Origin: Geobacter sp. AOG1
GTDB lineage: Bacteria > Desulfobacterota > Desulfuromonadia > Geobacterales > Geobacteraceae
DNA length: 64,000 bases
Assembly: GCF_019972315.1 (NCBI RefSeq)
Contig: NZ_BLIZ01000001.1
Span: 3,013,521 to 3,077,520 of the forward strand
Direction of reading: 5' to 3'
Made by a program: the position numbers and the translations under genes. Below the pieces are notes generated by a model. It saw only the letters and a list, made by a program, of their open reading frames with translations, made no database searches and was not told where the DNA came from. Of this stretch, positions 30,869 through 34,536 are shown piece after piece; position 1 is the first letter of the stretch, and each line of letters begins with the position of its first letter.

Positions 30869-31567
30869 CTATTTCGCATCCATCCTTGTCACTTTGCCGT
30901 CATCCAGGTCATACTTTGCAGTTACGATCTTGACCTTCCCTTCCTTGAGCATGTGTCTGATGACCGGAGATTTTTTCGGAATAGTGGCGGCCACGAGACG
31001 GATGTTGTCGTCGATGGCGGTTTCCACCAGTTCCGCTTTCTCCTTGCCTGCCGCTTCCTTCCGCGCCTGCTTCACGGCCGGCGCAATCTCCTTGATAATG
31101 GCGCCGATATTCCCCTCCGGTTTCCCTTTCGCATCGACGGCGGCAGTTACCGCACCGCAGCGCTCATGGCCGAGCACCACGATCAGAGGCGAGCCGAGAT
31201 GTTCGGCAGCATACTCGATGCTGCCGAGAACTATGGGATCGGGAACGTTGCCGGCAACCCGGATGACGAAGATTTCACCCATGCTCTTGTCGAAGATGAT
31301 TTCGGGGGGGACGCGGGAATCGGAGCAGGAAAGGATTATAGCGTAAGGCTTCTGCCCCTTCGTCAGAGCTTCACGTGCCGACGGGGTGCTCTCGGTGCAG
31401 GCGCCCATCTTGCTTTCAAGATATCTCTTGTTTCCATCGACCAGCTTCTGCCAGGCCTCATCGGCAGAAATGCCGGCCCCACCGCCGGACGCAACCGCGG
31501 CGGCGCTCCAGGCAGCCAGGACAACACCGGCACAAAGCATGACTACAGTTCTTCCCATTCCTTTCAT
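30869..31567 (-). CDS. Periplasmic beta-class carbonic anhydrase
   Basis: Interconverts CO2 and bicarbonate. About 232 residues from the ATG at 31567 (GGAGGG upstream), with an N-terminal signal sequence (VVMLCAGVVLAAWSAAAVAS) that sends it to the periplasm, less usual than the cytoplasmic form. Zinc ligands are visible in SCSDSRVPPEI (Cys and Asp/Arg dyad) and VLGHERCGAV (His and Cys). The gene stands 112 bases downstream of hgcB with its own ribosome site and terminator. Confidence 0.93.
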   Translation of the reverse strand: MKGMGRTVVMLCAGVVLAAWSAAAVASGGGAGISADEAWQKLVDGNKRYLESKMGACTESTPSAREALTKGQKPYAIILSCSDSRVPPEIIFDKSMGEIFVIRVAGNVPDPIVLGSIEYAAEHLGSPLIVVLGHERCGAVTAAVDAKGKPEGNIGAIIKEIAPAVKQARKEAAGKEKAELVETAIDDNIRLVAATIPKKSPVIRHMLKEGKVKIVTAKYDLDDGKVTRMDAK

Positions 31568-31678
31568 ATGCAACCCTCCAAGATAGATAGTTGAGTCGTG
31601 TCTAATTAGCATTTTTCATCTAGCGCGTCAATTTCTATTTCTGCTCATCAGCAGGTTTGACGCAGTCTGCAGGCGACT

Positions 31679-31966
31679 TCAGCAGCAACCGTCTCCTCGA
31701 CGACGCAGGTTAAGGCTGTCGAGCCATTCGTTGATCATCCCCGCCGCGCAACCGACCCCTGCATCCACCCGTATTGCCTTGACCGGACAGTTGAGGGCGC
31801 AGGCGCCACACTCCATGCAGGCATCGAAGGCGCGGATGACCGCCTTTTCCCCTTCGAGAGCGAACACCTGGTGGGGACAAACCACCGTGCACATCCCGCA
31901 GCCGATGCAGGTATCTTTATCCAACTCCAGGGTTGCCACGTTTTTCAGATAACTGAAACCTTTCAT
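31679..31966 (-). CDS. hgcB: Mercury methylation ferredoxin HgcB
   Basis: Ferredoxin that supplies electrons to the corrinoid protein HgcA in Hg(II) methylation. 95 residues, the length I recall for characterised HgcB. Two [4Fe-4S] sites: Cys20/23/26/30 (CIGCGMCTVVCP) and Cys50/53/56/60 with the HgcB hallmark ECGAC. Cys73 and the terminal Cys94-Cys95 pair, thought to handle Hg(II), are present. It starts 16 bases after hgcA with GGAGAG upstream, so the two form one unit. Confidence 0.96.
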   Translation of the reverse strand: MKGFSYLKNVATLELDKDTCIGCGMCTVVCPHQVFALEGEKAVIRAFDACMECGACALNCPVKAIRVDAGVGCAAGMINEWLDSLNLRRRGDGCC

Positions 31967-31982: not shown

Positions 31983-33149
31983 TTACTGGAAGGCCCCGAA
32001 TATCACCGCAACCCATGCCACAGCGCCGACGAGGACGGCCCCGGCCATGAGCGGCAGGGAGATGCGCATCTCCTTCTTCACGCCGGAGCGGGAGGTAAAG
32101 GGGGTACTGCCGGTGAAATTGAGGGAGAAAAAGGCGCTCACCGCCGGCATGGCAAGGAACAGTGGCACCTGTTCCAGCAGGCTTCCCGTACCGGTAAGGA
32201 GCGAAAAGAGCAGGGCCCAGAGGAAACCGACCAGCGCTCCCTTGACCGCGAAGCTTGACGTCGGCAGCCACGGCAGGAGAAGCGGCGTCGCTACAGCCCC
32301 CGCCAGGATGGCCCCCAGCCAGGCCACAAGGGGGAGAAAGGCGGCCGGAGCAGCAAAGCCAAGCCGTATCCCTCCCAGCAGATAGAGTCCGGCAAGGATG
32401 GGAAGGGAGCCCTTGAGGGCGGAAACCAACTCGACGGGAACGAGCACCAGTCGCTCAGCCGCGGTGAAGGTAAGTTCTCCCATGGCCGGGGTAGCCTGCT
32501 GGTCGTTGTCGAGGTACACGGGGAGGTCGTCAATCCGGATGGTGCTGAACCTGGCGGTGAACCCGGTCCGCTGCTGGACCTCCAGTGCCTTGACCCCGGC
32601 CGCGCCGAGGAGTGGGAGAAGGAGAGTGCGGTGCGTCACCACCCGTGCCAGGCCGCTCGCCTCAACCCGGCGCACCACCTCCCCCGTGCCGAAGGTTCCC
32701 TTCCCCGCCGCGCACCAGACGTTGATGCCATGCGTCTCCAGTACGAGGAGCCAGATGTTTCGCCCCTCAAGAGCCTGCCGTACCAGATCATAGCTCATCT
32801 TGTAGTTGGCAGTGACCGTCACCGGGTCGGTCGGGCCGGGGTTACCGATGGCGTAGAGTCCCGGCGGCACCAGGTACGACATCCGGCCGATTCCCCAGCG
32901 TGCCTTCCAGGCGCCTAAACGGTCGCGGAAACGAAGCGTGGAAGAAACGACCGGCACCTGCCCGGCCGGTGTCTCCAGCCAGCGGATGAAGCCGGGAACG
33001 TTCTCGTCGATGGACCCGCTGACCGCGGGTGTCTTGGGGCCTCAGCAGGGGGGCTTGTCGATATCCGGCCCTTCAGGTGAAGCGGTCCCGCATGGATCCA
33101 CCGGCTTTATGGTACGGATGGCCTCTGTTGAAAACGGCTTTCGTGTCAT
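31983..33149 (-). CDS. hgcA: Mercury methylation corrinoid protein HgcA, candidate selenoprotein (in-frame UGA at codon 36)
   Basis: Transfers a methyl group from its corrinoid to Hg(II). The cap-helix motif NVWCAAGK (corrinoid-ligating Cys at residue 146 of the full frame) is diagnostic. A CdhD-like corrinoid domain is followed by about five C-terminal membrane helices. The uninterrupted frame starts at a GTG (32957), but coding sequence continues upstream (ENVPGFIRWLETPAGQVPVV) to an ATG at 33149 with GGAGG eight bases before it and an ATGA overlap with the upstream stop. Only the TGA at 33042-33044 interrupts this 388-residue frame, directly after a Cys (PPC-UGA-GPKTP). A SECIS-like hairpin follows. 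If UGA is not read as Sec, the product would have to start downstream. Confidence 0.93.
33014..33044 (-). promoter_or_regulatory. Candidate UGA-SECIS element inside hgcA
   Basis: On the minus strand the TGA (33044-33042) is followed by 17 bases and then an apical loop GGTCA closed by a perfect 6-bp stem, ACCCGC/GCGGGT. The lower part can extend by two pairs past a two-base bulge. E. coli fdhF has, from memory, 18 bases and a GGUCU loop, so both distance and loop match what SelB recognises. Confidence 0.7.
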
Positions 33150-34009
33150 GCGTCAAGCCTCCCCGCCAGATCGTCGATGAACTGGCGCGCCGCCCTGCCG
33201 GACCGTTGTCCCTTGTAAAGCGCCCACCGGAGCGCTTCCCGCCGTAGGTCGTCCCGGTCGATGGAAAGCCCCAAGAGGTCTGCATGATGCTCAACGACCG
33301 CAAGGTACGTTTCCTGGCTGAACGGATAAAAACTGAGAGTAAGGCCGAACCGGTCGGCCAGGGAGAGCTTATCGGCAACCGCGTCCTCCGGATGGATCTC
33401 TTCCCGCAGGTTGTCCGCCATCGGTTCCGGCATGAGGTGGCGACGGTTGGAGGTGGCATAGATGAGCATATTGCCGGGACGCGCCTCGATGCCGCCATCG
33501 AGAAGGGTCTTCAGCTCCTGGTAGGAAGCGTCCCCCGCAGCGAAAGAGAGATCGTCGCAGAAAATGATGAACCGGTAGGGCACACCACGGATAAGGGAAG
33601 ATATCCGTGGCAGGCTCAGAAGTTCTCCCCGCTCCACCTCGATCAGACGCAGCCCGTGCGCGGCAAAAAGCTGCAGGAGGCCTTTGACGCAGGAGGATTT
33701 ACCGGTCCCCCTCTCCCCCCAAAGAAGAACGTTGTTGGCAGGTTTACCAGCCACGAACTGAGCGGTGTTACGCACCAGCTCCGTTTTGGCCATATCAACC
33801 CCCACCAGATCGTCCAGATCGACCAGGTGGGGATGCCGGACCGGTACGAGTCGGCCGGACTCTCCCCTCCCCTCCCAGCGGAACGCCTGGCAACTGGCAA
33901 AAAGCGCCTCATCCAGCGGCTCGGGCACCCCATACCGGTCCATGAGAACCTCCGCCTTCGCCAGGAACCGCTCCAGCTTACCTATTACCGTTTCCCATTG
34001 CTCTGGCAC
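33146..34009 (-). CDS. DUF815 family AAA+ ATPase
   Basis: About 287 residues starting at the GTG at 34009, two bases after the upstream stop, with AAGGAGGA before it. Walker A is LLWGERGTGKSSCVKGLL, Walker B is FIIFCDDLSF; a sensor-1 type Asn occurs in MLIYATSNRRHLMPEP, and a C-terminal Arg-rich helix (GQRSGRAARQFIDDL) follows. DUF815 ATPases are common in proteobacteria and lack an assigned substrate. Its stop overlaps the hgcA start as ATGA, so translation of hgcA is coupled to it. A role in maturing or inserting HgcA is possible but only inferred from position. Confidence 0.88.
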   Translation of the reverse strand: MPEQWETVIGKLERFLAKAEVLMDRYGVPEPLDEALFASCQAFRWEGRGESGRLVPVRHPHLVDLDDLVGVDMAKTELVRNTAQFVAGKPANNVLLWGERGTGKSSCVKGLLQLFAAHGLRLIEVERGELLSLPRISSLIRGVPYRFIIFCDDLSFAAGDASYQELKTLLDGGIEARPGNMLIYATSNRRHLMPEPMADNLREEIHPEDAVADKLSLADRFGLTLSFYPFSQETYLAVVEHHADLLGLSIDRDDLRREALRWALYKGQRSGRAARQFIDDLAGRLDA

Positions 34010-34011
34010 CG

Positions 34012-34536
34012 TTAATCCTCCTTGAGACTGCAGGCCTTTTCCCACGCGACATATCCGTCCCCTTTAATGGCCCAGAACTCCTCGATCCGGCGTTCGTAGA
34101 AGGCCAGATCGCCGCATTCCTGCTCGACCTGCCGAAGAAAACGAGCGGAAACGAGCTTGTGGTCATGGAGATACCGGTAAAAGGCGAGGATTCCGTCCAG
34201 GTACTGGCCAAGCTGGGCAACATCCGGTTCGATGGTGCTCACGATGTACCAGTTTGCCGCAAACTGGCGCACCAGGCCGGGCCGTTCGTCAAATATGTTG
34301 CGTGCCCGGTTGTCCACAACGAAATCACGGATGTAGTAATCGGCGCCATTCGCCATGCGCGTCGCCTCTTCGGGAGAGAGCCCCCCTTCCAGGAGTGCAT
34401 CGTAAAAACACCGCAGGATATCCTGGCAGAGACGGTCGACGCGAAGGGAGTCATCCAGGGTTTCCTGGTCGAAATCCTTTTTGTTGATCTTCAGTTCTCC
34501 CGTCCGGTTCATCGAAGTATCATAACTGGCTGACAT
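34012..34536 (-). CDS. Uncharacterised protein upstream of the DUF815 ATPase
   Basis: 174 residues, soluble, mostly helical and acidic, with no signal peptide or metal motif. Segments such as RVDRLCQDILRCFYDALLEG, GLSPEEATRMANGADYYIRD and LDGILAFYRYLHDHKLVS suggest a compact helical fold. RBS AGAGG before the ATG at 34536. It is separated by only two bases from the ATPase start, so the two probably act together. Family not recognised. Confidence 0.72.
   Translation of the reverse strand: MSASYDTSMNRTGELKINKKDFDQETLDDSLRVDRLCQDILRCFYDALLEGGLSPEEATRMANGADYYIRDFVVDNRARNIFDERPGLVRQFAANWYIVSTIEPDVAQLGQYLDGILAFYRYLHDHKLVSARFLRQVEQECGDLAFYERRIEEFWAIKGDGYVAWEKACSLKED

What the first reader, a model, noticed from the sequence alone, without database searches (positions are those of the whole stretch)
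31983..33149. HgcA encoded with an in-frame UGA and SECIS-like hairpin: candidate selenoprotein mercury methylase
From the ATG at 33149 (GGAGG site; ATGA overlap with the upstream stop) the frame runs into the known HgcA body with a single interruption, TGA at codon 36 (33042-33044). It follows a Cys codon, giving PPC-U-GPKTP. Codons on both sides read as plausible HgcA N-terminal sequence, so loss of function or re-initiation at the distant GTG (32957, no good ribosome site) is less likely. Seventeen bases after the TGA is a 6-bp stem with loop GGTCA, almost the spacing and loop of E. coli fdhF. A Cys-Sec pair would be a very strong Hg(II) ligand upstream of the corrinoid domain. Whether this is already known for some HgcA proteins I cannot tell.
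Basis: partly seen in the sequence, partly recalled or inferred. Interest (0 to 1): 0.92.

Follow-up and report, generated by a model that had tools for sequence, protein, structure and literature searches.

The report
HgcA mercury methylase containing selenocysteine
A bacterium related to Geobacter encodes its mercury-methylating protein HgcA with a selenocysteine next to a cysteine in a flexible tail; this form of HgcA is already in the literature, and the comparison here suggests it is the usual form in this bacterial order.

Summary
HgcA (31983-33149, minus strand) has one in-frame UGA, codon 36 (33044-33042), giving PPC-U-GP. The own genome has tRNA-Sec, selA, selB and a selD with its own in-frame TGA. 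The codon is TGA in 30 of 30 fetched family loci and, among genomes read in the order's other families, TGA in 43 and Cys in 10 of 53. The hairpin covaries, exceeds synonymous-codon expectation and is complete in 79 of 99 distinct TGA sequences against 0 of 34 Cys-form ones. Codons before the UGA are under purifying selection. UGA is very probably read as selenocysteine.

This is known: a 2026 review lists HgcA (NF040863, motif CU) as a selenoprotein. The comparison adds repeated Sec/Cys swaps and CC-rich tails in Cys forms. A Hg(II)-capturing role is inferred, not shown. Against: in 4 of 86 TGA genomes, two of them 99% complete, neither selB nor tRNA-Sec was found.

The parts
31983..33149 (-). 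hgcA, read through one UGA: 388 residues (N-terminal tail, corrinoid-binding domain, transmembrane domain)
   Evidence: NF040863, 434 bits; Pfam CdhD
33042..33044 (-). UGA codon 36, probably read as selenocysteine, next to Cys35
   Evidence: TGA in 86 of 113 class genomes examined, preceded by a Cys codon in 86 of 86 (the genomes were not a random sample)
33014..33030 (-). SECIS-type hairpin: 6-bp stem, loop GGUCA, loop 17 nt after the UGA
   Evidence: fits the bacterial SECIS constraints quoted
33158..33162 (-). GGAGG, likely ribosome-binding site of hgcA, 8 nt before ATG
   Evidence: sequence
32955..32957 (-). GTG codon 65, start of the ORF listed without read-through; not the likely start
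31679..31966 (-). hgcB ferredoxin, Cys form (GVGC), ends in CC before a TGA stop

Best explanation
The gene encodes a selenoprotein form of HgcA. Translation starts at ATG 33149; at codon 36 SelB with Sec-tRNA, guided by the hairpin just downstream, inserts selenocysteine, giving a Cys-Sec pair in a flexible tail ahead of the corrinoid-binding domain. Well supported by comparison: the UGA is decoded and the position is Sec/Cys interchangeable. Inferred: the Cys-Sec pair binds Hg(II) (or the methylmercury product) and passes it between the cell's thiols, the HgcB cysteines and the corrinoid site, doing with one pair what most Cys forms do with several CC pairs. The confidence given is for Sec decoding; for the Hg-ligand role I would put about 0.5.
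For: Sec machinery in the same single-contig genome (selD itself has an in-frame TGA). TGA in 30 of 30 fetched family loci; in the order's other families 43 TGA and 10 Cys of 53. Hairpin: all six pairs in 79 of 99 distinct TGA sequences and in 0 of 34 Cys-form ones; for the 96 TGA sequences that continue with GP, synonymous resampling gives 7.5% complete on average (highest of 1000 runs 16.7%) against 82% observed, and offset 11 alone stands out. Covariation score 0.297 against 0.182 in shuffles, 0 of 500. dN/dS about 0.19 before and 0.14-0.16 after the UGA. Supported branches force at least 7 Sec/Cys changes. In the model the pair lies in a stretch with pLDDT under 50, probably disordered. 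CC/CU pairs: exactly one in 95 of 99 Sec forms; two or more in 27 of 34 Cys forms.
Against: No protein or mass-spectrometry evidence. In 4 of 86 TGA genomes (G031, G199, G216, G227) neither selB nor tRNA-Sec was found, and G216 and G227 are listed as 99% complete; selA was not found in G199, G216 and G227 either (not tried for G031). The association of TGA with the machinery is not significant (Fisher p = 0.083). Six of 99 distinct TGA rows have fewer than five pairs at this place. The number of pairs with a double change (3) is not above shuffles (263 of 500). Sign tests for hairpin and CC pairs along supported branches have a median p of 0.0625 (range 0.0625-0.25). The Hg-binding role rests on analogy.
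Confidence: 0.93

Rival explanations
1. UGA is a true stop and functional HgcA starts downstream, at GTG 32957 or nearby; the upstream 35 codons are a leader peptide.
For: The ORF listed without read-through begins there, and the NCBIfam profile starts matching at residue 65, so a shorter HgcA would still match the known family. Some distant HgcA have no residue aligned at the motif (16 of 57 named loci; of these L049 is cut by its contig end, and L083 and L087 have CC pairs elsewhere).
Against: Purifying selection on codons 1-35 and 37-64, Cys in place of UGA in 26 of 113 class genomes examined, fixed covarying hairpin.
Confidence: 0.04
2. Pseudogene or sequencing error.
For: A single in-frame stop in one genome would look the same.
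Against: The same UGA in 86 of 113 class genomes examined; the rest of the gene is under purifying selection, dN/dS about 0.07 for codons 65-200.
Confidence: 0.005
3. UGA is read through as another residue (by a near-cognate Trp or Cys tRNA) without the Sec machinery.
For: G216 and G227, each listed as 99% complete, have the UGA, but no selA, selB or tRNA-Sec was found.
Against: 82 of 86 TGA genomes have selB and/or tRNA-Sec; the residue in other genomes is Cys, the usual partner of Sec; the hairpin has SECIS features. selB and tRNA-Sec lie side by side in at least one relative (G193), so one missing contig could remove both.
Confidence: 0.02
4. Sec is there, but the Cys-Sec pair is a redox switch or electron relay and not a Hg(II) ligand.
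For: Many bacterial selenoproteins are redox enzymes, and HgcAB needs reduction of its corrinoid (established knowledge, recalled).
Against: Most Cys forms carry several CC pairs, which looks like metal binding; the motif is predicted disordered, without a thioredoxin-like fold around it.
Confidence: 0.3

Closest known systems
HgcA selenoprotein, NF040863 with motif CU (table of PMC13188914, which cites Zhang & Gladyshev 2008 and Haft & Gwadz 2023)
   Same: Same family, same CU motif (passage seen).
   Different: Haft & Gwadz 2023 is not held and I saw nothing of it; in the main text of the 2008 paper my four terms had no hit. I cannot say which species or counts were reported. No difference in kind was found.
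HgcA of Pseudodesulfovibrio mercurii ND132 (studied enzyme)
   Same: Corrinoid-binding and transmembrane domains, partner HgcB (passages). The conserved Cys93 of ND132 corresponds to the Cys of NVWCAAGK (recalled), Cys146 here.
   Different: That Cys lies 53 residues further from the start here, so the ND132 protein has a shorter N-end; I did not fetch the ND132 sequence.
HgcB selenoprotein, NF040864 with motif GVGU (table of PMC13188914)
   Same: Partner protein, neighbouring gene.
   Different: HgcB here has GVGC, so it is the Cys form.

Membership tests
bacterial selenoprotein gene | in-frame UGA inside a conserved reading frame | tested here: met
bacterial selenoprotein gene | Cys-containing homologues at the same column | tested here: met
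   26 of 113 class genomes examined
bacterial selenoprotein gene | SECIS: loop 3-9 nt, upper stem 4-16 bp, a G in the first two loop positions, loop 16-37 nt after the UGA, energy at most -7.5 kcal/mol | tested here: met
   loop 5 nt GGUCA, stem 6 bp, 17 nt, -10.7 kcal/mol for the 17-nt hairpin; constraints as quoted. bSECISearch itself was not run
bacterial selenoprotein gene | selA, selB, selC, selD in the genome | tested here: met
bacterial selenoprotein gene | Sec found in the protein | not testable with these tools
   needs mass spectrometry or 75Se labelling
HgcA mercury methylation protein | family profile over its cut-off and the NVWCAAGK motif (motif recalled) | tested here: met
   434 bits against 275; motif
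HgcA mercury methylation protein | hgcB next to it | tested here: met
   NF040864, 129.3 bits
HgcA mercury methylation protein | Hg methylation activity | not testable with these tools
   no assay
HgcB selenoprotein | GVGU motif | tested here: not met
   GVGC

The most novel reading that the evidence does not exclude
The tail of HgcA is a mercury-capturing arm in which one Cys-Sec pair stands in for arrays of two to five vicinal Cys pairs, so that methylmercury production by Geobacter relatives depends on selenium supply and on the Sec machinery, unlike that of Cys-form methylators.
Probability: 0.35. Interest if true: 0.7.

Novelty: already known. Interest (0 to 1): 0.42.

Why it matters
HgcAB makes methylmercury, a neurotoxin that builds up in food webs. 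If a large group of methylators needs selenocysteine in HgcA, selenium availability could affect methylation directly and not only through HgSe formation or general effects on the cells. Gene calls that stop at the UGA would miss the tail, and the NCBIfam profile itself starts matching after it; cloning the short form may lose a functional part (inference).

Tried and rejected
Single-sequence folding gave no signal above shuffles; comparison replaced it. Rfam found no family at the site (one match, E 4.1, elsewhere in the scanned kilobase). The first extraction of the upstream frame read minus-strand loci in the wrong orientation; one search corrected it. Two regular-expression surveys of the codon missed many loci and were replaced by a profile-based survey. 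A first HgcB tail search had a faulty pattern and found nothing; one search replaced it. A Sec-containing HgcB in this operon was rejected: GVGC, and the terminal TGA is TAA or TAG in several relatives with no conserved read-through.

Literature. Searches. The papers found that link HgcA with selenoproteins in their text are PMC13188914 and PMC11588087 (passages). Others cite the 2023 paper; of these I looked at passages of PMC12013277 only. Passages of four papers of 2005-2008 on selenoproteins showed no HgcA-like entry for my terms; the list for Geobacter sulfurreducens was cut off. Passages of PMC10896945 had selenium effects on methylation but no selenoprotein. Passages of PMC7573106 say that reads with stop codons were removed from an HgcA amplicon survey.

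Rows left out and bias. Of 162 class genomes with an HgcA match, 113 were examined and 49 not fetched. The fetched set was not random: the best 30 of each search, then rows picked with and without an inside TGA. Of the 49, the listing shows one inside TGA in 7 family genomes and 2 of the order's other families, no TGA in 26 genomes of other orders and in G226 (whose match starts after the motif), and gives no row for 13. So 13 TGA of 30 in other orders overstates the share there. The 34 Cys-form rows include L091 and L095, which have a UGA four residues further on and were classed by alignment. The presence lists for tRNA-Sec and selB were copied by hand; their lengths (220, 236) agree with the tallies. 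Fifty-nine of 133 tree rows were under half filled, and the tree was a quick one. The structure model starts at residue 22 and has Cys for Sec.

Full report
Observation. The hgcA gene runs from ATG 33149 to TAA 31983 on the minus strand with one interruption, TGA at 33044-33042, codon 36. Read through, it gives a 388-residue protein whose residues 65-382 match the HgcA family NF040863 at 434 bits, and hgcB follows. The start has GGAGG 8 nt upstream and overlaps the stop of a DUF815 ATPase gene. The hairpin is there; its stem begins 11 nt and its loop 17 nt after the UGA.

Machinery. The window lies in a single-contig genome of 3,677,207 bases. It has tRNA-Sec (74.7 bits, gathering score 47), selB (376.5 bits over two stretches, cut-off 242), selA (613.8 bits) and selD with one in-frame TGA (369.8 bits), an independent sign that this genome decodes UGA as Sec.

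Conservation. In the window's family 30 of 30 fetched loci, the own one included, have CU-GP. In the class, 162 of 277 genomes matched the HgcA alignment; I examined 113: TGA 86, Cys 26, no aligned residue 1. By kinship: family 30 TGA of 30; other families of the order 43 TGA and 10 Cys of 53; other orders 13 TGA, 16 Cys and 1 without of 30. The set was not random. Of the 49 not fetched, the listing shows one inside TGA in 7 family genomes and 2 of the order's other families, none in 27 (26 of them from other orders), and no row for 13; the place of an inside TGA was not checked there. So the Sec form is the usual one in the order, but outside the order Cys forms are commoner than 13 of 30 suggests. 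Of 59 loci from named genomes, 57 aligned to the profile: TGA 30, Cys 11, no aligned residue 16. TGA loci include Geotalea toluenoxydans, Oryzomonas japonica and Geomonas sp. Red32. The two sets overlap in part. In the class set the codon before TGA is Cys in 86 of 86; in the named locus L061 it is not.

Hairpin. Among distinct 48-nt sequences all six pairs form in 79 of 99 TGA sequences, five in 14, fewer in 6; of 34 Cys-form sequences none has six and 2 have five. For the 96 TGA sequences that continue with GP, resampling synonymous codons from the same pool gives 7.5% complete hairpins on average (highest of 1000 runs 16.7%) against 82.3% observed; no other offset from 5 to 17 nt averages above 3.5 pairs, against 5.75 at 11. 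On 95 ungapped sequences 95.8% of cells pair (shuffled 89.5), 35 cells change on both sides (shuffled 9.2), covariation is 0.297 (shuffled 0.182, 0 of 500; slid versions 0.08-0.18). The number of pairs with a double change (3) is not above shuffles (263 of 500). Relatedness inflates these figures, but the Cys forms act as a natural control.

Selection and history. Against the two nearest relatives (L046, L043), dN/dS is about 0.19 for codons 1-35, 0.14-0.16 for 37-64, 0.07 for 65-200 and 0.20-0.23 for the rest (few sites in the short stretches). On a quick tree of 133 HgcA bodies, 59 of them under half filled, Sec/Cys changes 14 times on the best tree and supported branches force 7. In 7 independent pairs the hairpin goes with Sec in 4.4 on average and never against; two or more CC pairs go with Cys in 4.6 and never against; median p is 0.0625 for both (range to 0.25), which does not reach 0.05.

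The tail. A model from 20 sequences (mean pLDDT 85, Cys in place of Sec, starting at residue 22) leaves its residues 1-18 below 50, with the pair at 14-15, and is confident from about residue 30. Sec forms have exactly one CC/CU pair in 95 of 99, two in 3 and none in 1; Cys forms have two or more CC pairs in 27 of 34, up to five, often as CCPP. A published model of HgcAB proposes that the paired cysteines at the end of HgcB transfer Hg(II), methylmercury or both (PMC7305189, passages). I infer a like role for the HgcA tail; it was not testable here.

Against. In 4 of 86 TGA genomes neither selB nor tRNA-Sec was found: G031 (84% complete), G199 (78%), G216 and G227 (both 99%). A second look in G199, G216 and G227 found no selA and no tRNA-Sec; G227 has a selD without inside TGA, G216 and G199 none at E 1e-50. 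Missing contigs are the likely cause, since selB and tRNA-Sec are neighbours in G193 for one, but this is not shown. Four Cys genomes (G179, G224, G240, G248) lack both too, and 22 of 26 Cys genomes have at least one, so the machinery does not by itself predict TGA (Fisher p = 0.083).

Literature. The review PMC13188914 lists 'Mercury methylation corrinoid protein HgcA ... NF040863, CU', citing its references 61 (Zhang & Gladyshev 2008) and 63 (Haft & Gwadz 2023), and HgcB 'GVGU', citing 63 (passages). [quoted passage not shown] That paper is not held and I saw nothing of it; in the main text of the 2008 paper my four terms had no hit. The finding is therefore known in kind. In the passages I saw I did not meet the order-wide dominance, the hairpin loss in Cys forms or the CC-pair contrast, but the unseen paper may contain them.

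Noticed in passing
L091 and L095, HgcA N-tails: HgcA with an in-frame UGA in GAG-U-GPS, without a Cys directly before it: a possible second kind of Sec tail.
   Followed up: no
L061, HgcA N-tail: UGA at the usual place, but preceded by Leu where the other TGA rows have Cys.
   Followed up: no
L135, L147, L148, L150, L151, L154 and other Cys-form loci: HgcA tails with three to five CC pairs, often CCPP; may be a mercury-binding array.
   Followed up: partly
G216 (L170) and G227 (L161): UGA-containing HgcA in genomes listed as 99% complete in which no selA, selB or tRNA-Sec was found.
   Followed up: partly
L013 (G000:C1:1793170-1794093): selD of the window's genome has one in-frame TGA, so it is probably a selenoprotein too.
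   Followed up: no
window 33146-34045, minus strand: DUF815 AAA-type ATPase whose stop overlaps the hgcA start (ATGA); probably co-transcribed.
   Followed up: no
window 30869-31612, minus strand: Carbonic anhydrase (Pfam Pro_CA) downstream of hgcB.
   Followed up: no
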